Virus record (IMG/VR): IMGVR_UViG_3300025127_000009
Span: 124,001 to 188,000 of that record
Source of the DNA: a virus
DNA length: 64,000 nucleotides
Direction: 5' to 3' (one strand)
The stretch's first letter is position 1. Each line of letters begins with the position of its first letter. The notes under the pieces are model-generated. The model made no database searches, had not been told where the DNA came from, and saw nothing but the letters and a program-made list of their open reading frames with translations. Below are positions 806 through 27,389 of the stretch, piece after piece. The position numbers and the translations under genes were made by a program.

Positions 806-1079
806 TCTCGTAAAAGTTCATATTCTTTGAAATGTGTCTGGCCAATGCCTGAGAGGCGCTTAAGACATCATCCTGGTTATCACAGCACCAGGAGCCCTGC
901 ATTGTGAGCATGTTACGGATATCAACAAACAACCTCTCAAAGGTCCCGTCAGCATCTTCTAGGCTCTTCGTGTCTAAATTATCATTTATATATCCATAAG
1001 TCTTTTGGGTATGCGTCTCGTCTACCCATTTGTATTGTGATCCACTGCGCTCTTCTGAAAAGTCATATCTGTTCTTCAT
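798..1079 (-). CDS. unknown protein
   Basis: 93 residues, acidic in the middle (LDTKSLEDADGTFERL), with a helical second half and a WCCDNQDD motif near residue 65. It overlaps the upstream gene by 17 nt and the downstream gene by 8 nt. I do not recognise the family. The pattern VDIRNMLTMQGSW suggests a soluble helical protein. Confidence 0.6.
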   Translation of the reverse strand: MKNRYDFSEERSGSQYKWVDETHTQKTYGYINDNLDTKSLEDADGTFERLFVDIRNMLTMQGSWCCDNQDDVLSASQALARHISKNMNFYENG

Positions 1080-1257
1080 TTAAAACTAAACTCCAAAATT
1101 TAAATTTAAGTATCTTGCCTTCGTTAAGGCCATTGTCCATAAGGACGTTATAATAATCGTTACCCAATACACCAACAATGGTGCCGCTTATATTCAGTGG
1201 TCTACCTAGCGGGTAGTCCGTTATGTATACTTTATCTCCCTTTTGATAGTCGGCCAT
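1063..1257 (-). CDS. small SH3-like protein, first gene after a promoter
   Basis: 64 residues with the opening KGDKVYITDYPLGR and later SGTIVGVLGNDYYNVLMDNG, a classical GD-x-V SH3-like or KOW-like beta-barrel pattern. It is the first gene downstream of a near-consensus sigma70 promoter (1293-1321) and has a GGAG ribosome site 11 nt from the ATG. It overlaps the next gene by 17 nt. The function is unknown. Confidence 0.65.
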   Translation of the reverse strand: MADYQKGDKVYITDYPLGRPLNISGTIVGVLGNDYYNVLMDNGLNEGKILKFKFWSLVLNEEQI

Positions 1258-1292
1258 CTTTATTCATACTCCGATGGCCAGTTTGTTTTTAC

Positions 1293-1321
1293 ATTAAAAC
1301 AAAAATTTTGAATTATGTCAA
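1293..1321 (-). promoter_or_regulatory. sigma70-type promoter
   Basis: Reading the minus strand: -35 TTGACA at 1321-1316, a 17-nt spacer, and -10 TTTAAT at 1298-1293. The TGA inside the -35 box is also the stop codon of the preceding gene (1318-1527). It should drive 1257 downwards. Confidence 0.7.
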
Positions 1322-1527
1322 ATGTTTTTTCTATTATCTGCATAATCTTTTGCTTCCCTGAGTAGTTCACAGGTAGCATCAAGATTAAAGCGCTTTGGTA
1401 TTTGAATCATTGGGAGAATCCCGTGAACAATGAAGAAGACTGACCGACAAAGGAAACCTAATCCTATTGAGCATGCAAATTTTAAATGTGATAGGTATGT
1501 TTCGTTATTGTCAATCAAGTGCTTCAT
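1318..1527 (-). CDS. membrane protein resembling DUF6356
   Basis: 69 residues. The core NETYLSHLKFACSIG, followed by an aromatic hydrophobic stretch and VHGILPMIQIPKRF, resembles the small DUF6356 family (a His-containing NETY-x-x-H opening, one or two membrane helices, then an H-x-x-x-P motif). This assignment is from memory of the motif pattern. Its stop codon lies inside the -35 box of the next promoter. It starts 7 nt after the upstream lipoprotein gene. Confidence 0.55.
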   Translation of the reverse strand: MKHLIDNNETYLSHLKFACSIGLGFLCRSVFFIVHGILPMIQIPKRFNLDATCELLREAKDYADNRKNI

Positions 1528-1534
1528 ACACTAA

Positions 1535-1795
1535 CTAGATCGAATAATCAGATCTTTCTGAGGAATCATCACCACCTATCGGGAAGTGAATCGTAACTTC
1601 TGGAGTTTGATCCTCCACAGTCAACGCAATACATTTAAATGTTGTTCCCTCTGGTGCGATATTCATACCGCAAACAGAACCGCGATTGCAAACGACCTGA
1701 TCAGATCTGCAATCATCTTGAATCTCCTCAAAGGAACCCTCCTCATCACCACAACCGATAAACATACACGCCAACAAAACTAAAACCGTCTTCAT
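1535..1795 (-). CDS. small predicted lipoprotein
   Basis: 86 residues with a type II signal peptide: MKTVLVLLACMFIGCGDEEG. The lipobox cysteine is either C9 (LLAC) or C15 (FIGC). The mature part is acidic and Cys-containing (DDC, VVC, VC). The gene has a strong ribosome site (AAAGGAGG). Lipoproteins encoded by lytic phages are often linked to superinfection exclusion (Llp-like), but nothing in the sequence proves that here. It is the second lipoprotein in the window besides 25137-27389. Confidence 0.7.
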   Translation of the reverse strand: MKTVLVLLACMFIGCGDEEGSFEEIQDDCRSDQVVCNRGSVCGMNIAPEGTTFKCIALTVEDQTPEVTIHFPIGGDDSSERSDYSI

Positions 1796-1818
1796 AGTAA
1801 CCTCCTTTCTGTTTGTAT

Positions 1819-2328
1819 TTACAGTTTTAAAAATTTCTTATAATAATCTGGAAAATTTTGAAAGTATTTAGTCTGCATGAGATTTTTATGCGCCTTATTT
1901 AACACATCTTTTTTTATAATACTTACCAAAAAATACGGGGCTTGGCCCCTTGGATTAAACTCATCTATACTATATGTGTCGTTAGGATTGATACATATAG
2001 TTTGATACCCTTCAATGTTGTTTTTATCTAAAGACTTATTAAAAATATTCTGGAGTTTTTTAGTATACTCTCCCTCAACTTCAACCGGCTGATCATCCTC
2101 AAAAAGAGCCCAAAGTCCCGATTGATACCCGTCATCCTCCATATCTTTTACCACTTGAGCAAAAGTAGTATAACTAGGATCATATACATCAATCAATAGA
2201 TCACCGCTCACCCTTTCGGCTTTCGCGTAAGGACAAGCAGCAAACCCAGAAAATTCTTCTCTTGGTTGTTCTAAAACTTCGATCAAATATGTAATGATCT
2301 TACCGACTATTTGTTTTTTTTGCAACAT
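1819..2328 (-). CDS. unknown protein with PREEFSGFAACPYAK motif
   Basis: 169 residues. The N-terminal motif PREEFSGFAACPYAK and the C-terminal pattern (NPRGQAPYFLVSI, then ALHKN-type helix and YFQNFPDYY) suggest a cytosolic single-domain protein, loosely like DUF1415 proteins with a Cys-Pro-x-Ala-Lys signature. That link is a weak inference. It starts 5 nt after the upstream gene with no clear ribosome site, implying translational coupling. Confidence 0.65.
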   Translation of the reverse strand: MLQKKQIVGKIITYLIEVLEQPREEFSGFAACPYAKAERVSGDLLIDVYDPSYTTFAQVVKDMEDDGYQSGLWALFEDDQPVEVEGEYTKKLQNIFNKSLDKNNIEGYQTICINPNDTYSIDEFNPRGQAPYFLVSIIKKDVLNKAHKNLMQTKYFQNFPDYYKKFLKL

Positions 2329-2333
2329 CTTTT

Positions 2334-2729
2334 TTATTTAAATGAATTAATTAAACTTCTTTGTGCCTTTCTTTTTTCAACCAAATAAGAAAACTTACTT
2401 GTTGAAAAAACTTTATCCTCTGGGGATTCATAGATCATGTGTACTTTTGACATAGGAAACCCTTTTAAAGTTACACCATCACCCTTAAATTCTAAATACT
2501 CTTTTGTTAAGTCAGAAGAGTTTATATAACCGGAAGAGTAAGACTTTGGATCTCCAGTGTCTACCAACAACAAAACATCAAATTTTATAACATCAGAAAT
2601 AGACCTGGCCGAAGCATCACCTAAAGAATTCATTAGTTTAATACCGCTAACTACGTTTTTGATATTACCTTTTTCACTCTTTAAACAATGCTTTTGGCTT
2701 TTCATTTCAATTTTAAATTTCGCACTCAT
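2334..2729 (-). CDS. unknown protein
   Basis: 131 residues, basic N-terminus (MSAKFKIEMKSQKH) and a mixed alpha/beta core including FDVLLLVDTGDPKSY. No family is recognised. It overlaps the upstream TTG-initiated gene by 17 nt and is followed closely by the next gene, so it belongs to the cluster driven from the promoter at 2947-2975. Confidence 0.6.
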   Translation of the reverse strand: MSAKFKIEMKSQKHCLKSEKGNIKNVVSGIKLMNSLGDASARSISDVIKFDVLLLVDTGDPKSYSSGYINSSDLTKEYLEFKGDGVTLKGFPMSKVHMIYESPEDKVFSTSKFSYLVEKRKAQRSLINSFK

Positions 2730-2913
2730 GATCCCAACCTTGCTTGTCTACATGAATTATCTTTCCATCAGAAAAAGTTTCAACTGCCAATTCAAGAATA
2801 TCTGATTTATCAAACCTATTCTTTCTAGTGTTCAATTCATCTCCTATATTGTAAACCATATCAAAAAATTTTGACCACTCAACTTGGCTAAAAATATTAT
2901 CTATTTTCTTCAA
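2713..2913 (-). CDS. small unknown protein with TTG start
   Basis: 66 residues (MKKIDNIFSQVEW). The initiator is TTG at 2913, chosen because a strong AGGAG site lies 9 nt upstream and a near-consensus promoter lies just beyond it. The C-terminal segment (LELAVETFSDGKIIHV) looks alpha/beta. The function is unknown. Confidence 0.55.
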   Translation of the reverse strand: MKKIDNIFSQVEWSKFFDMVYNIGDELNTRKNRFDKSDILELAVETFSDGKIIHVDKQGWDHECEI

Positions 2914-2946
2914 TTAAAAAAACTCCTTTCCAAACACTGTGGAATA

Positions 2947-2975
2947 ATAATAGCAAAAATTTATTACTAATGCAA
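2947..2975 (-). promoter_or_regulatory. sigma70-type promoter
   Basis: Minus strand: -35 TTGCAT at 2975-2970, a 17-nt spacer, and -10 TATTAT at 2952-2947. It lies in the 75-nt gap after the fibre-like gene 2989-3468 and upstream of the TTG-started gene at 2913. Confidence 0.6.
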
Positions 2976-2988
2976 CATAAAAAATCAA

Positions 2989-3468
2989 TTAAAAAGGCTG
3001 TAATTCAAAAACAACTAGTACGTTCACCCTACCATGATTATTTGTTGGATTAATAGATAATCCGATTACATCATGAGCGCTGAATGTCGCAGAGTTTGAA
3101 AATGTTGCTTTAACCACTGTATTCGCTGTGGATAAATCTATAGTCTGAGTTTCTGTTGCCGTTGAATTTATTTGTTCTGTACCGTCAGAAGACTTGTGAA
3201 AACCAACCTCCGTACTCCCTGGGGTTGCGTCAGACCTAATCAACACATGCTTCAATGTCCCATTTGAAGGCACAATAAACTTATTATTAACACCTGGACT
3301 TGTAGTAGAACCGGTATCAACTGGTCTAATAAATATCTTACTGCTCCCGCCTGTATTTGTATACTTTGCACTAAAAAAATGTTTCAGCACTAATGTACTT
3401 TCGTCTATATCATCACCAGTAACAGTATCGTCTGTTATTTGTTTTCCGTCTATTCCTGTTCTTGCCAT
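2989..3468 (-). CDS. fibre-like beta-structured virion protein
   Basis: 159 residues starting MARTGIDGKQITDDTVTGDD, the ITDDTV-type opening seen in phage tail-fibre and appendage proteins. The rest is rich in Ser, Thr and Asn with alternating beta-strand character (GTLKHVLIRSDATPGST, HDVIGLSINPTN). It is probably a small trimeric or sheet-rich virion or decoration protein, but it sits about 36 kb from the other tail genes, directly downstream of the tmRNA. A GGAG site lies 13 nt before the ATG. The receptor-binding role is inference. Confidence 0.55.
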   Translation of the reverse strand: MARTGIDGKQITDDTVTGDDIDESTLVLKHFFSAKYTNTGGSSKIFIRPVDTGSTTSPGVNNKFIVPSNGTLKHVLIRSDATPGSTEVGFHKSSDGTEQINSTATETQTIDLSTANTVVKATFSNSATFSAHDVIGLSINPTNNHGRVNVLVVFELQPF

Positions 3469-3497
3469 ATCTTAATTAATCTCCAAAATAAGAAAAT

Positions 3498-3785
3498 TGG
3501 TGGAGGTGGCGGGACTCGAACCCGCGTCCAGAATTTCTCAAATAGTACGTCATTCACAAGGTTAGTTAGTTTTAGGCTCTAACAAGCACACGCGACAAAA
3601 GACAAAAAATTTGCAACTTTGGGTTTCAAGGTTGTTGCCACCCCGAGACAATTAAGCAGCGAGTGCGAAGTCGTCTAATTCAACGTCATTATTTGCGTTT
3701 ATATTTTTTGGGTATTTTTACTGTGCCTACCCACACAGCCTTGCACGCAGTATTATCCTCACCCTGTCGAAACCAAGTCACCCCC
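3498..3785 (-). ncRNA. ssrA: transfer-messenger RNA (tmRNA)
   Basis: A 288-nt one-piece tmRNA read on the minus strand. The 5' end GGGGGUG pairs with CACCUCC before an encoded 3' CCA (3500-3498). The T arm is GCGGG-UUCGAGU-CCCGC, and the 5' domain has the typical GGUUUCGACAGG. The resume codon GCA at 3696-3694 opens the tag reading frame, which runs to UAA at 3654-3652 and encodes ANNDVELDDFALAA. tmRNA and SmpB rescue stalled ribosomes and tag the nascent chain for ClpXP-type proteases. The 5' end lies 1 nt after the FKBP stop codon, so it must be cut out of a longer transcript, presumably by host RNases. No SmpB gene was found in the window. Confidence 0.95.
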
Positions 3786-3786
3786 T

Positions 3787-4260
3787 TTATTCTCCAATTT
3801 CCACTAGTTCAATTTCAAAATTCAATGGTTGACCGGCCATAGGGTGGTTAAAGTCGATGATAACAGATTCATCACTTACCTCTTCAATAGAACCGCGAAC
3901 TTGATTGCCATTGATCGAACCCTCAACAACTACACCAGTTTCAAACTCAAAATCTTCTGGGAAAGATGTCTTTGGCACTTCTCTAACGGCTTCATCAATT
4001 CGCTCACCATATGCTTCGTCAATCTCAAGATTAACTGTCTTTTTTTCACCAACTGTCATTCCGTTAACGGCTGCGTCAAAACCAGGGATCATCTGGCCAG
4101 AACCAACTGTAAATTCAATTGTTTCATTCCTATCATAAGAACTATCAAATACAGTTCCGTCGTTTAAAGTACCCCTATAGTGGACCTTAACGTTGTTGCC
4201 CTCACCAGCAGTAGGTGTGGTCTTCTTGGTGCTCTTCCTCTTTCGCTTCGTTGTGCTCAT
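3787..4260 (-). CDS. FKBP-type peptidyl-prolyl isomerase, SlyD-like
   Basis: 157 residues. A lysine-rich N-terminal tail (residues 1-17) is followed by an FKBP fold: VKVHYRGTLNDGTVFDSS, GSGQMIPGFDAAVNGM, VGEKKTV. An inserted chaperone flap of about 50 residues comes next, then the SlyD-type signature IIDFNHPMAGQPLNFEIEL. It should catalyse prolyl cis-trans isomerisation and bind unfolded chains in the cytoplasm. It lacks the His/Cys-rich metal-binding tail of E. coli SlyD. It has its own promoter (4301-4329) and is followed after 1 nt by the tmRNA, suggesting joint expression of a folding factor and a ribosome-rescue RNA. Confidence 0.92.
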   Translation of the reverse strand: MSTTKRKRKSTKKTTPTAGEGNNVKVHYRGTLNDGTVFDSSYDRNETIEFTVGSGQMIPGFDAAVNGMTVGEKKTVNLEIDEAYGERIDEAVREVPKTSFPEDFEFETGVVVEGSINGNQVRGSIEEVSDESVIIDFNHPMAGQPLNFEIELVEIGE

Positions 4261-12682: not shown

Positions 12683-14278
12683 TCAGTTTTCTTTATTATC
12701 TTGAATAATCGCAAAATTAGTTGTTAATAAAGTTCCAGCCGCAGAAACTGCATTTCTTAGCGCATTAACTGTGACCTTGCAAGGATCTATTATTCCCTCC
12801 TCAAACATGTCAACCACTTCACCAGTCAAAAAATTAAAACCGACACTATTATTATTTTGTTCTAAAAGAATTTCATTAATCTCAGAAAAATTTAGGCCGG
12901 TATTTTCGATCATAGTTGAAATTGGAGATCGCAATACTTTTAAAAATATATCAACAGCAAAAGACTGTTCATTGGATAATTCCAACTCCTCTACATCTGT
13001 TTCTAAAGATTGTGCTATTCTATAAAGCGTCATGCCACCGCCAGGAACAATACCCTCCTGTTGTGCTGATCTAACCGCCTCTAGAGCATCTTCTATCCTG
13101 TGTTTCTTTTCAATCATTTCAATTTCAGTTGCAGCGCCCACTCTAACAATGGCGACACCGCTAGACAGTCTAGTCACTCTTTCTTGAATTTGCTCTGCAT
13201 CTACTAAACTTTCAGAATCTTTAACTTGCTGTCGAAGGTCGTCAATTCTATCAGATAGTTCTGATGTGTCTGCTGCGCCACCCACAATAATAGTATTGTA
13301 TTTCGAAATCTCCACGGTCTTGCATGTACCAAGATCGTTAATTGTTGCCGTCCGTAAATCATCACCAAGCATAGTTTTAAAGTATCTAGACCCAGTTGCA
13401 ATTGCCATGTCCTGCATTATCGCCCTGCGCTCCTCTCCGTATCTTGGAGATTTAACGGCAGCAACCTTCATTGAGCCACGCGCTGTGTTCATAATAAGAG
13501 CACTTAAAGCCTGACCTGCAATATCATCTGCAACTATAACAAGTGGTTTGTTCTCTCTGGCTGCAATTTCTAACACAGGTAAAATTTCTTGAACATTCTC
13601 AATCTGCGAGTCGCACAAGAATAAAAGTGGATTTTCATATCTACAAACATTTCTTCTTTGATCTGTAACAAAATAATTTGAAACAAAACCAGAGTTAAAT
13701 CTAAAGCCCTCAACAAGATCAAGAGTGGTCTCTGTAGAACGGCCATCTTCAATAGTAACAGACCCTGACTTACCAACCTTATCAACCGCAGTGGATATAA
13801 GATCACCAATAACTGGATCGTTGTTCGCTGATATCTTTGCGACGAAGGCGATATCTTCAACGCTAGAAATAGGACGAGAAACCTCTCTTATTTTATCGCA
13901 TACAAGCCCACAAACCTTGTCTAAGCCACGTTTTACCTCAATAGGAGATATACCCTTACTCAGCAATTCAAGAGAGTTAGAGAACAATTCTCGCGCTAAA
14001 ATGGTAGAAGTTGTAGTACCATCACCAGCATCTGAATTAGTTCTCTCTGACGCTTGCTTAACAATTTCAACTGCCACGTTTTGAAAAGGATTTTCTAATT
14101 CTACAAACCTAGCAACTGTAACACCATCTTTTGTTATGATGGGAGACTTACCTTTTTCTTTTATTATTACATTTCGGCCACGGGGACCGTATGTAGATGC
14201 TACATTGTCGGCTAGTGTGTTTACACCCTCCAACATTAATTCATGCAAACTCTTTCCATTAGAATAACTCTTGGACAT
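12683..14278 (-). CDS. groEL: chaperonin GroEL (Hsp60)
   Basis: 531 residues, essentially full-length. Visible features: N-terminal STYGPRGRNVII, ATP site DGVTVA and DAGDGTTTS (Asp86 corresponds to E. coli Asp87), apical-domain IVADDIAGQALSALIMN, and the C-terminal ATPase segment KKHRIEDALEAVRSA with EGIVPGGG. The usual Gly-Gly-Met tail is missing; the protein ends IIQDNKEN. It forms a double-ring folding machine needing a GroES-type lid; a candidate lid is 28087-28413. It has its own near-perfect promoter. Phage GroELs are known in some large phages but remain uncommon. Confidence 0.97.
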   Translation of the reverse strand: MSKSYSNGKSLHELMLEGVNTLADNVASTYGPRGRNVIIKEKGKSPIITKDGVTVARFVELENPFQNVAVEIVKQASERTNSDAGDGTTTSTILARELFSNSLELLSKGISPIEVKRGLDKVCGLVCDKIREVSRPISSVEDIAFVAKISANNDPVIGDLISTAVDKVGKSGSVTIEDGRSTETTLDLVEGFRFNSGFVSNYFVTDQRRNVCRYENPLLFLCDSQIENVQEILPVLEIAARENKPLVIVADDIAGQALSALIMNTARGSMKVAAVKSPRYGEERRAIMQDMAIATGSRYFKTMLGDDLRTATINDLGTCKTVEISKYNTIIVGGAADTSELSDRIDDLRQQVKDSESLVDAEQIQERVTRLSSGVAIVRVGAATEIEMIEKKHRIEDALEAVRSAQQEGIVPGGGMTLYRIAQSLETDVEELELSNEQSFAVDIFLKVLRSPISTMIENTGLNFSEINEILLEQNNNSVGFNFLTGEVVDMFEEGIIDPCKVTVNALRNAVSAAGTLLTTNFAIIQDNKEN

Positions 14279-14302: not shown

Positions 14303-14330
14303 ATTATACACACTATATCATGTGTGTCAA
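14303..14330 (-). promoter_or_regulatory. consensus sigma70 promoter of groEL
   Basis: Minus strand: -35 TTGACA at 14330-14325, a 16-nt spacer, and -10 TATAAT at 14308-14303. The TGA of iscU is inside the -35 box. The leader of about 20 nt carries GTGAGG before the ATG. No CIRCE element is visible. Confidence 0.85.
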
Positions 14331-14710
14331 GGATTATTTTTATTTTTATAATCTTCTATCGCTGCTCTTATCGCATCTTCGGCCAGCACCGAGCAATGAA
14401 TTTTCACTGGTGGCAAACAGAGGTGTTCTGCTATATCTTTGTTCTTTATTTTTATTGCTTCGTCTAGTGTCCTACCCTTTACCCACTCTGTAACAAGTGA
14501 AGATGAAGCAATTGCGGATCCGCAACCATAAGTTTTAAACTTAGCGTCTTCTATTAGGCCGTCATCATTGACCTTAATTTGCAGCCTCATGACATCTCCA
14601 CAAGCAGGAGCGCCGACTAAACCAGTGCCGACGCTTTCATCTTTCACATCTAAAGAACCAACATTTCTGGGATTCTCGTAGTGTTCCAAAACTTGCTTTG
14701 AATATGGCAT
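14327..14710 (-). CDS. iscU: Fe-S cluster assembly scaffold IscU
   Basis: 127 residues aligning along the full IscU family. The three cluster-ligating cysteines sit at C37 (APACGDVM, with Asp39), C63 (YGCGSAIASSS) and C106 (KIHCSVLAEDAI), the same numbering as E. coli IscU, and LPPVK (99-103), the HscA-recognition motif, is intact. It should assemble and transfer [2Fe-2S]/[4Fe-4S] clusters using host IscS and HscA/HscB, since no partner is encoded here. It lies 7 nt downstream of gene 14718-15704. Confidence 0.96.
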   Translation of the reverse strand: MPYSKQVLEHYENPRNVGSLDVKDESVGTGLVGAPACGDVMRLQIKVNDDGLIEDAKFKTYGCGSAIASSSLVTEWVKGRTLDEAIKIKNKDIAEHLCLPPVKIHCSVLAEDAIRAAIEDYKNKNNP

Positions 14711-24434: not shown

Positions 24435-25146
24435 AATTCTTTATCTTTTCGCTGCTTTCAAACACAGTTTTTTCGATTGTCTCAACGTGCCTAGAAGTTA
24501 CGACCAAAAGAGGTTTTTTTCTATACTTGCCGTCTTTAGTCGCTGGTGCTGTTTCAATGTTTAAATCTTTTAATATCTTCTGCAAAACAAATCTAGACAT
24601 TGTGTCAGAATAATTAAAATCTAATAACTGCTCTTTATTTAAAACAGAAACGCACACAGCATTTCTTGGGCCTTCAAACAATATTTCTTTTATAAAAGTG
24701 TCAGTAGGACTAATGCCATCTAATTCCGAAACATTGCAATAAGATATCTTAACAAAGTCCAAAACTTTATACAAGCCTAAATTTATTATCTTCTCAACAT
24801 TATTAATGCATTTGATCTTAGAATCACTAAACAGTAAACACTCCTTATATTCAAGAGAAATTTTCTTCTTCGATAAATTAAAAAGTATTTTATCCTCCAC
24901 TCTAACATAATCTGGATTTGAATGATTCCTAAGTAACCCTCTCTCTGAAACAATAAATTTTAAAAATTGCCAGCAATCAAAGTGCTTTGTAAAAGAAATA
25001 TTTTCTACTATCAGTGGCTCTAAAAATCGCTGGTCAACAGAAGGTGCTTTAAAAGAAGACAAAACTATTGGTATATTCTTGTGATAAGATAAAAGCAAAG
25101 CGCTCAAACTTGAGCCAACTATTATCTTGTCATCATTCACAGGCAC
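24373..25146 (-). CDS. unknown protein
   Basis: 257 residues. The N-terminus DDKIIVGSSLSALLLSYHKN looks like a first strand and glycine-containing turn of a nucleotide-binding (Rossmann/oxidoreductase) fold, and PLLVVTSRHVETIEK occurs near the end. No diagnostic motif follows. It has a long 62-nt overlap with the next gene and a 10-nt overlap with the lipoprotein gene, so these three are probably one transcription unit. Confidence 0.5.
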   Translation of the reverse strand: MPVNDDKIIVGSSLSALLLSYHKNIPIVLSSFKAPSVDQRFLEPLIVENISFTKHFDCWQFLKFIVSERGLLRNHSNPDYVRVEDKILFNLSKKKISLEYKECLLFSDSKIKCINNVEKIINLGLYKVLDFVKISYCNVSELDGISPTDTFIKEILFEGPRNAVCVSVLNKEQLLDFNYSDTMSRFVLQKILKDLNIETAPATKDGKYRKKPLLVVTSRHVETIEKTVFESSEKIKNYGYDDEKRIEQAYRRDCPSI

Positions 25147-27389
25147 ACTAACCCTATGTAATCATAACGATGTGCTACAAAGTTAACTGGCTGTGTCTCG
25201 TTGTTTGATTGCTGCCCTGAATTGTCAGATGGCCCTAGACATGCTTCATCGATTATGGACATTAAATTTTCGTACATCTGATTTTGATTCCAAGTTAGTT
25301 CAAAGGACCTGCCGCCTGTTTGAATCGCCCAGTCTTCCCAATTAGCAGCGTTGTGAGGGTTTATAAAAGTATAAAGTTTAAATCTATTGATTCCTCCTAG
25401 CGTCGTTGTTATTAAGTCTTGTGTTATTTCAGGATCGAGCCAAGATTGATCTTCTTCGTCAGTAAAAACAATTGCAACTCTATCTACGTTCTGTCTCCAA
25501 TTAATCTTGAAGTTCTCTTTACTTGGAGTTGATGCAGTGTCACTAAGCCAAATAGAGTTTCTAACATCAAAATTAGCATTTGAAGATATATCTCTCGTAA
25601 CAAAATACAGAGCATCCCTGAGCATTTCCTGGCTAGTATCCATACCTTCAGCATCTAACGCTGCGAAAGACGAAAGAAAATCTTCAAAAGGAGATATATC
25701 AGTTACCAAGTACAGTCTCTCTCTTTCGCGATCATCTTTCTTAGGACCAATTACAAGGCCCCAATGAAGTTTATCTTCTGCCTGAAAATGTGCTGCAAAA
25801 CGATTTAATGCTGATCGAACCGCTGTTATCTCCTCATCCATTGAACCTGACCAATCAACAATGAACAAAATATCTGTTTCTTTAATCTCTTCTCCGTAGT
25901 CTGTTTCTCCGTCGCAGTCATTATCTGCACCATCACAAACTTCTTGTTGTGGGGTAATTTCATCTTTACAAAGGTCTCTACGGAAACGATCCCACCTATC
26001 GAAATTACCCCACTGTCCTTGATTGCAAACCATGTTTCCAGCAATACAAACCCCGACATCCAAAGTTCCATCTGGCCCTGTATAGCACGCTACCATCAAC
26101 TCCTCATCAATATTTTGGTCGCAGTCTTCATCAAAATTGTTACATATTTCATTTTGTACTGCCATGCCCGCATAACGGTCACATTCTTGATTAGCCAACG
26201 TTTCTAACTGTGCACATAACGCAAGACATTCTGACATCCCTAATTGTGTGCATTCAGGAGGATCATTGCAAGTGCAAGTTTTAAATCCTTGGCCACACCT
26301 TAAAGGTGGTTCAGTGCAAGGAATCAATACTCCAACATCTTGCACAGTGCAATCGCAGTTAAGACCTTCATCAATTAACCCATCACAATCTTGGTCTATA
26401 CCATCACAAGGATCAACCTCTTCTTCTGGTTCAGGAACAGTGCAAGATATCCAATTACCAGAAGAACAAGTCTCAAAACCAACACCGCAAGCAGTTTCAC
26501 ACTCACGAATTAAATCTTCATCAACACTGCCGTCGCAGTCATTATCTTGTCCGTCACACTCATCAGCAGGGACTGGGCCGCATTTGTCGCACTCATTGCG
26601 CTGACCCTCGTCTACTCTTGAGTCACAATCATTATCTTCATAATCACAAACTTCTTCGTTGGGGAAGGGTGCATCGCAATCTATGATCTGTTGGTCAACA
26701 CAGAATCCCCAACCCGTACCACATTCACTTTCGCAGAGAAACCTACCCTCGTCTACCCTATCATCGCAGTCATTATCTTCTCCATCACAGGATTCATCCT
26801 GACAAGGCCGACAAGGGCCGTGAATCAAATTTCCTTTATTGCAAACAACTCTCTGTTTGCCAAACCGACCATCAGCCAACTCACAGTCAAACCACTGAGT
26901 TTGATTAATCTCTGTGTTAGGGGGACACTCGAAAGCCAGTTCACACTCTTCTCTTCGAATAATTTGAGGAGGAGGACAACCTTCATCAAAGCCAAAATCA
27001 CAAGGTTGGCTAGTTTCGTCACACACAGAAACAGTGACTCTTGATCTATGAATCTGGTTATCCGGACGAGGTGGGCAATACCATTGCTGCTGTTCACAAC
27101 ACTGTGGATTACACCTACAATAAAGTTCGAAATCTGAAGGATCCTCGTCTCCTTCGCACTCACTAGTGAAGCCTACCTCGCTCACTGGTGGTAAGTCTGT
27201 GCCTGCCGTGCTCAAAGGAGTAAAAACATCAATTGGCACAGACCCAGCAGAAGACTCTTCAATTGGTAATTCAGGAGGAATTGCTAGGCTTGGTTCACCT
27301 GCCGCTTGAACTTGAGCGTATTCAGATGATGCCGTCTTATCATTACAAGATAACAATGAAAATAAAATTAATATTGCTAAGTACTTCAC
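25137..27389 (-). CDS. VWA-domain lipoprotein with six MopE-type metal-binding repeats
   Basis: 750 residues, GTG start with GGAG upstream. A lipoprotein signal peptide (MKYLAILILFSLLSC, lipobox LLSC, Cys15) is followed by a Cys-rich extracellular part with six repeats of the type CDGxDNDCDGxxDEG, the calcium/copper-binding MopE-like motif. A von Willebrand factor A domain follows, with MIDAS motif DWSGS (FIVDWSGSMDEE). Such proteins are typical of the cell surface of Myxococcota-type bacteria. In a phage this is probably an acquired host gene, for example affecting adsorption or superinfection, which is inference. It lies between thyX and unknown genes. Confidence 0.9.
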   Translation of the reverse strand: MKYLAILILFSLLSCNDKTASSEYAQVQAAGEPSLAIPPELPIEESSAGSVPIDVFTPLSTAGTDLPPVSEVGFTSECEGDEDPSDFELYCRCNPQCCEQQQWYCPPRPDNQIHRSRVTVSVCDETSQPCDFGFDEGCPPPQIIRREECELAFECPPNTEINQTQWFDCELADGRFGKQRVVCNKGNLIHGPCRPCQDESCDGEDNDCDDRVDEGRFLCESECGTGWGFCVDQQIIDCDAPFPNEEVCDYEDNDCDSRVDEGQRNECDKCGPVPADECDGQDNDCDGSVDEDLIRECETACGVGFETCSSGNWISCTVPEPEEEVDPCDGIDQDCDGLIDEGLNCDCTVQDVGVLIPCTEPPLRCGQGFKTCTCNDPPECTQLGMSECLALCAQLETLANQECDRYAGMAVQNEICNNFDEDCDQNIDEELMVACYTGPDGTLDVGVCIAGNMVCNQGQWGNFDRWDRFRRDLCKDEITPQQEVCDGADNDCDGETDYGEEIKETDILFIVDWSGSMDEEITAVRSALNRFAAHFQAEDKLHWGLVIGPKKDDRERERLYLVTDISPFEDFLSSFAALDAEGMDTSQEMLRDALYFVTRDISSNANFDVRNSIWLSDTASTPSKENFKINWRQNVDRVAIVFTDEEDQSWLDPEITQDLITTTLGGINRFKLYTFINPHNAANWEDWAIQTGGRSFELTWNQNQMYENLMSIIDEACLGPSDNSGQQSNNETQPVNFVAHRYDYIGLVCL

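What the first reader, a model, noticed from the sequence alone, without database searches (positions are those of the whole stretch)
3498..4260. Phage tmRNA directly fused in transcription to a SlyD-like isomerase
The tmRNA 5' end lies 1 nt from the FKBP stop codon, so the RNA must be processed out of an mRNA. The tag ANNDVELDDFALAA ends in a ClpXP-type degron. A phage that couples a folding catalyst to a ribosome-rescue RNA could be clearing truncated proteins from degraded host mRNA during infection. From memory the AN-x-x-VEL start recalls myxobacterial tags; that needs checking.
Basis: partly seen in the sequence, partly recalled or inferred. Interest (0 to 1): 0.85.

Follow-up and report, generated by a model that had tools for sequence, protein, structure and literature searches.

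The report
Phage tmRNA gene abutting FKBP gene
A large, probably marine phage carries an intact gene for tmRNA, the RNA that frees stuck ribosomes and tags their unfinished proteins for destruction; it sits right behind a protein-folding gene, but relatives show that this neighbour is an accident of gene order, and phage tmRNAs are already known.

Summary
ARAGORN and Rfam RF00023 (123 bits) place a one-piece, 288-nt tmRNA at 3785..3498 (-), tag ANNDVELDDFALAA. It starts 1 nt after the stop codon of a 157-aa FKBP of the SlyD/SlpA type. Acceptor stem with G3-U pair, T arm, encoded CCA, PK1 and covarying helices are intact. No SmpB was found in the 192.6-kb record, so host SmpB would be needed. 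The tag start ANxxVEL is indeed a Myxococcota type. The 'FKBP-tmRNA coupling' is not supported. Of 80 FKBP-bearing phage loci with flanks, only the window's own lineage has a tmRNA nearby. A collinear relative, G312, has a 92%-identical tmRNA 32 kb from its FKBP, and FKBP relatives lacking the insert keep FKBP next to other genes. The tmRNA moved behind FKBP in this lineage. FKBP and tmRNA do tend to co-occur in large phages (13/17 against 7/19), together with Hsp20 and GroEL here. Phage tmRNAs are known (402 of 18,146 phage genomes, PMC9004378). One side finding could matter: in related phages the CDS before the tmRNA ends at, or up to 49 nt inside, the mature tmRNA, so tmRNA maturation would leave a nonstop message.

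The parts
3498..3785 (-). one-piece tmRNA (ssrA) gene, 288 nt, CCA encoded
3652..3696 (-). tag reading frame, resume codon GCA, ANNDVELDDFALAA plus TAA
   Evidence: (nt 90-134 of the gene)
3787..4260 (-). FKBP-type peptidyl-prolyl isomerase, SlyD/SlpA type with insert-in-flap region, 157 aa; its stop codon ends 1 nt before the tmRNA
3789..3818 (-). weak sigma-70-like match (TTGAAA-18-GAGAAT) inside the FKBP 3' end; not evidence of a promoter by itself
2989..3468 (-). next co-directional ORF, 159 aa, unknown function, starts 29 nt after the tmRNA
1258..3786 (.). segment (tmRNA plus about six ORFs) absent between FKBP and the 1063-1257 ORF in syntenic relatives L132-L136
9963..10361 (-). Hsp20 small heat-shock protein
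12683..14278 (-). GroEL-type chaperonin
14327..14710 (-). IscU-like protein (NifU_N); its orthologue lies beside the tmRNA in relative G312

Best explanation
The element is a genuine, constrained phage tmRNA gene. Inferred action: it is transcribed with a minus-strand operon, and host RNase P and 3' nucleases release the RNA. Host AlaRS charges it through the G3-U pair, and host SmpB and EF-Tu bring it to ribosomes stalled on broken messages. The ribosomes are freed and the ANNDVELDDFALAA tag sends the fragments to ClpXP-type proteases, which keeps translation going during infection. The FKBP gene next to it is an independent phage gene. In this lineage the tmRNA gene was relocated, with an inserted block, from its older site about 37 kb away to directly behind FKBP. 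Shown: gene, structure, tag, absence of a SmpB hit, relocation relative to relatives. Inferred: transcription, processing, charging, tagging and benefit.
For: (ARAGORN, Rfam); 7-bp acceptor stem with G3-U in all seven close relatives; PK1 second helix UGGGUA/UACCCA, UGAGUA/UACUCA or UGAGUG/CACUCA; the 3' helix occurs in four compensated versions (GUUAG/CUAAC, GUCUAG/CUAGAC, GUCUUG/CAAGAC, GUCUGA/UCAGAC); 92.3% identical to the G312 tmRNA, while FKBP is 57% identical at protein level. G312 is collinear with this phage over its length; FKBP is at the matching place, but the tmRNA is beside the helix-turn-helix-like gene whose homologue here is at record position about 89.9 kb (tmRNA here at 127.5 kb); syntenic relatives L132-L136 have FKBP followed by the 1063-1257 homologue, without the tmRNA block; 12 further FKBP phages of at least 100 kb have a tmRNA 22-128 kb away; no SmpB hit. 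PMC9004378 and PMC4131195: phage tmRNAs are established.
Against: No expression data. The record is a linear metagenomic contig, so SmpB could lie outside it or be too divergent. Relocation is inferred from gene order; the direction (which arrangement is older) rests on the helix-turn-helix-like gene/tmRNA linkage in G312, G016, L153 and the ANNN-tag group. The host is unknown.
Confidence: 0.82

Rival explanations
1. FKBP and tmRNA form one selected proteostasis unit: co-transcription matches the amount of folding catalyst to the amount of ribosome-rescue RNA.
For: FKBP-bearing contigs of at least 100 kb carry a tmRNA in 13 of 17 cases, against 7 of 19 tRNA-bearing background contigs of at least 90 kb (Fisher p about 0.02, not corrected for kinship). 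In four ANNN-tag phages (L015, L083, L095, L052) FKBP lies 0.2-1.1 kb downstream of the tmRNA, once with Hsp20 between. Hsp20 and GroEL are in this window.
Against: Order and side differ (FKBP upstream here, downstream there); 22-128 kb apart in the other large phages holding both; in a collinear relative the tmRNA is 32 kb away; FKBP is absent from 34 of 38 tmRNA-bearing contigs.
Confidence: 0.1
2. The tmRNA has its own promoter inside the FKBP 3' end, so it is not cut out of the FKBP message.
For: Sigma-70-like 9/12 match at 3818-3789, with a start expected near 3782.
Against: Weak match; promoter-like sites are expected by chance in AT-rich DNA (mean 5.1 per shuffled region); no such element upstream of the G312 tmRNA (by eye); the phage's promoters are unknown.
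Confidence: 0.2
3. Cutting the tmRNA out of the co-transcript leaves the upstream message with one base after its stop codon (here) or without any stop codon (in relatives), so tmRNA maturation makes its own nonstop substrate and represses the upstream gene, as happens for arfA.
For: Upstream ORFs end at tmRNA nt -1 (FKBP, window) and at 0, 0, +1, +1 and -6 in five close relatives, with three unrelated kinds of ORF. In 10 of 14 ANNN-tag loci the conserved MWK ORF ends at nt 8-49 inside the tmRNA, six of them using the tmRNA's own UGA at nt 6-8. arfA precedent: PMC10107115.
Against: Gene gaps of 1 nt or less are common here (22/64); FKBP keeps its stop codon; the ORF set is not phylogenetically independent; no RNA data.
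Confidence: 0.12
4. The phage RNA is a decoy that ties up host SmpB, or is inactive.
For: A tmRNA-domain-only phage RNA (DS6A type) is a known precedent for inhibition (PMC4131195).
Against: Complete tag frame, PK1 and charging determinants conserved with covariation.
Confidence: 0.05

Closest known systems
Phage-encoded one-piece tmRNA (Mycobacterium phages Bxz1 and Wildcat, Bacillus phage G, Streptomyces BE phages)
   Same: Complete tmRNA with its own tag in a phage genome; no SmpB found here; tRNA genes elsewhere in the genome
   Different: Different tag (ANNDVELDDFALAA); only the 3' tRNA-like part is alignable to named phages at DNA level
Melnitz / pelagimyophage ssrA (PMC9004378)
   Same: Marine myophage tmRNA inside an operon; same proposed roles
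   Different: Melnitz type is permuted two-piece and under a glutamine riboswitch; this one is one-piece with no Rfam riboswitch hit in the window
Myxococcota chromosomal tmRNA (tags such as ANDNVELALAA, ANDDVEMAMAA)
   Same: One-piece; AN[DN][DN]VE tag start and AA end
   Different: Phage tag carries an extra acidic-DF stretch; 53-54% identity over aligned positions
SlpA/SlyD FKBPs
   Same: FKBP fold with insert-in-flap region; FKBP core residues invariant in 12 phage homologues
   Different: No His-rich C-terminal tail; basic N-terminal extension

Membership tests
tmRNA (ssrA) | Covariance-model score above the family cut-off over the full length | tested here: met
   123.1 bits against 47, positions 1-374 of 374
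tmRNA (ssrA) | tRNA-like domain: 7-bp acceptor stem with G3-U, T arm, CCA end | tested here: met
   GGGGGUG/CACCUCC paired, G3-U, ACCA end
tmRNA (ssrA) | Resume codon and short tag frame ending in a hydrophobic degron | tested here: met
   GCA at nt 90...ALAA, UAA
tmRNA (ssrA) | Pseudoknot PK1 upstream of the tag | tested here: met
   Two interleaved helices, compensated across relatives
tmRNA (ssrA) | Full set of downstream pseudoknots PK2-PK4 | tested here: inconclusive
   288 nt; one downstream pseudoknot-like arrangement and a covarying 3' hairpin; region shortened
tmRNA (ssrA) | SmpB partner | tested here: inconclusive
   None in the 192.6-kb record; the host gene cannot be examined
tmRNA (ssrA) | Processed, charged and tagging in vivo | not testable with these tools
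   No RNA or protein data
FKBP, SlyD/SlpA group | FKBP_C domain with insert-in-flap region | tested here: met
   Pfam E 3e-25; phmmer alignments to SlpA/SlyD over residues 20-156
SlyD sensu stricto | His-rich metal-binding C-terminal tail | tested here: not met
   Protein ends ...FEIELVEIGE
FKBP-tmRNA functional module | Adjacency conserved across divergent phages | tested here: not met
   Only the window's lineage among 80 FKBP loci; 22-128 kb apart elsewhere

The most novel reading that the evidence does not exclude
Phage tmRNAs of this clade are placed so that the upstream coding sequence runs up to, or into, the mature tmRNA. Each tmRNA maturation event then truncates the upstream message at or before its stop codon, giving a built-in feedback in which tmRNA production creates its own nonstop substrate and silences the gene before it. 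In the window that gene is FKBP, with one base to spare.
Probability: 0.12. Interest if true: 0.65.

Novelty: new member of a known kind. Interest (0 to 1): 0.36.

Why it matters
It adds a one-piece, Myxococcota-style tmRNA to the known phage ribosome-rescue genes. It shows that such a tmRNA can move within a collinear phage genome while its sequence stays 92% conserved, which argues for selection on the RNA itself rather than on its neighbour. The tag start gives a weak host lead for an uncultured phage group. The overlap of upstream coding sequences with mature tmRNA in related phages is a directly testable regulatory idea.

Tried and rejected
Chance call of the tmRNA: rejected. Conserved FKBP-tmRNA operon: rejected by synteny, although FKBP lies downstream and near in four ANNN-tag phages. 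Paralogous structural genes as the cause of the move: window 2989-3468 against L007 9421-9939, no similarity. Terminator between FKBP and tmRNA or after the tmRNA: none found. A chromosome with the same tag (ANxxVE...FALAA, GCA resume codon): 0 hits in the GTDB genome set. Closest named phage at DNA level across FKBP plus tmRNA: no match; the FKBP hits annotated in 'phage' records of Acinetobacter and Salmonella look like mislabelled bacterial contigs.

Full report
Observation. ARAGORN and the Rfam tmRNA model agree on a complete one-piece tmRNA on the minus strand at 3785..3498. The FKBP reading frame 4260..3787 ends in TAA, one A follows, and the tmRNA begins. The window is positions 124001-188000 of a 192,597-bp linear virus record that also holds five tRNA genes and myophage-type genes such as a tail sheath. 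In the window itself lie GroEL, Hsp20, an IscU-like protein and a DNA polymerase III alpha subunit.

Is the tmRNA real and constrained? The acceptor stem pairs fully and keeps the G3-U alanine signal, CCA is encoded, PK1 is present, and helices are compensated among seven related phage tmRNAs. It is 99.7% identical to L131 (the same lineage), 92.3% identical to the tmRNA of phage record G312, and about 74-77% identical to those of G016, L152-L154 and G313. No SmpB was found in the record, so the RNA would have to work with host SmpB; the record may be incomplete.

The tag. A scan of 84,980 species genomes for GCA-AAY-RAY-RAY-GTN-GAR...GCN-NTN-GCN-GCN-stop gave five hits, four of them in Myxococcota MAGs, one being a marine Myxococcales MAG. 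Among the 30 best-scoring tmRNA loci in a sample of that phylum, 9 tags start AN[DN][DN]VE, five of them ANDNVELALAA. The acidic-DF extension (DDFALAA, FEDFALAA) was found only in phages. This is a host lead, not a host assignment. A MopE-motif protein at 25137-27389 points the same way only by general knowledge of where that motif is common.

The FKBP. It is a phage gene family of its own: 360 viral contigs match. In 80 loci with up to 10 kb of flank, the only tmRNA is in the window's own lineage. L132-L135 and L136, syntenic relatives at 63-66% FKBP identity, have FKBP followed directly by the homologue of window 1063-1257. The segment with the tmRNA and about six ORFs is thus an insertion here or a loss there.

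Where the tmRNA comes from. G312 (185.6 kb) is collinear with this record after circular permutation. Its FKBP sits in the same place, but its tmRNA lies between IscA/IscU genes and a helix-turn-helix-like gene whose homologue here is at record position about 89.9 kb. The same linkage of the helix-turn-helix-like gene with the tmRNA is seen in G016, L153 and the ANNN-tag phages. The simplest reading is that the tmRNA moved about 37 kb to the end of FKBP in this lineage.

Co-occurrence. FKBP-bearing contigs of at least 100 kb hold a tmRNA in 13 of 17 cases, counting the window's own record. tRNA-bearing contigs of at least 90 kb picked without regard to FKBP hold one above cut-off in 7 of 19; one of those seven is a short, 82-nt hit. 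The difference (p about 0.02) ignores kinship, and G307 and G309 look like the same virus. From the other side, 4 of 38 tmRNA contigs have this FKBP and 0 of 24 background contigs do. Three of those four (L015, L052, L095), plus L083, have FKBP 0.2-1.1 kb downstream of the tmRNA, and L052 has an Hsp20 gene between. A shared proteostasis theme is plausible; a fixed FKBP-tmRNA unit is not.

Tight abutment. In the close relatives the ORF before the tmRNA ends at nt -6, 0, 0, +1 and +1 relative to the tmRNA start, and at -1 in the window, although the ORFs are of three unrelated kinds. In a sixth relative (G313) the nearest upstream ORF ends 15 nt before the tmRNA. In 14 loci with the conserved MWK ORF, ten end inside the mature tmRNA at nt 8-49, six of them with the tmRNA's own UGA at nt 6-8 as stop codon. 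Since 22 of 64 gene gaps in the window are 1 nt or less, abutment alone is ordinary. Ending inside a processed RNA is less so, and would make the upstream message nonstop after 5' processing, as with arfA mRNA (PMC10107115). This is my most novel reading and is untested.

Known context. tmRNA genes were counted in 402 of 18,146 phage genomes, and the same roles (keeping the translation machinery running, or degrading host proteins) have been proposed (PMC9004378); earlier lists are in PMC4131195, and huge phages are reported with tmRNA and SmpB (PMC7162821). The finding is therefore a new member of a known kind.

Mechanism, with status of each step. Gene, fold and tag: shown. Transcription with FKBP: inferred from packing; a weak promoter match inside the FKBP 3' end is an alternative. 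5' processing by RNase P, charging, SmpB-dependent rescue and ClpXP-type degradation: inferred from established tmRNA biology. Benefit to the phage: inferred.

Noticed in passing
L026, L046, L064, L123, L192, L399, L130, L083, L095, L015 (tmRNA 5' ends): A conserved small ORF (MWKVYKWNGHYIQG...) just upstream reads into the mature tmRNA; in six loci its stop codon is the tmRNA's own UGA at nt 6-8.
   Followed up: partly
L125:3830-4150 (+): A ClpS adaptor gene (Pfam E 1.7e-30) lies 1.2 kb downstream of a phage tmRNA with tag ANNNYYYESARLAA: a phage pairing a rescue tag with a Clp adaptor.
   Followed up: no
L052 (tmRNA c3835-4225): tmRNA, Hsp20 and FKBP follow one another within 2 kb on the same strand in a 98-kb phage contig.
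   Followed up: no
G312:9639-9927 (L402) and G313 (L401): Phage iron-sulphur assembly genes IscA and IscU lie directly downstream of the tmRNA; the IscU orthologue here is beside GroEL at window 14327-14710.
   Followed up: partly
L128, L152, L153, L154 (ORF before the tmRNA): These ORFs share the N-terminus MPKFYRQNKKRIDPRYFLNE, but the rest of the proteins look unrelated.
   Followed up: no
L193, L404, L408, L409 (G015, G321, G314, G328): RF00023 hits above cut-off that ARAGORN does not call; sisters L406 and L407 read tags such as GETIAKLQAVGLIRTEEVTVA, a different tmRNA lineage in FKBP phages.
   Followed up: no
window 25137-27389 (-): 750-aa probable lipoprotein with a MopE metal-binding motif and a weak vWA match.
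   Followed up: no
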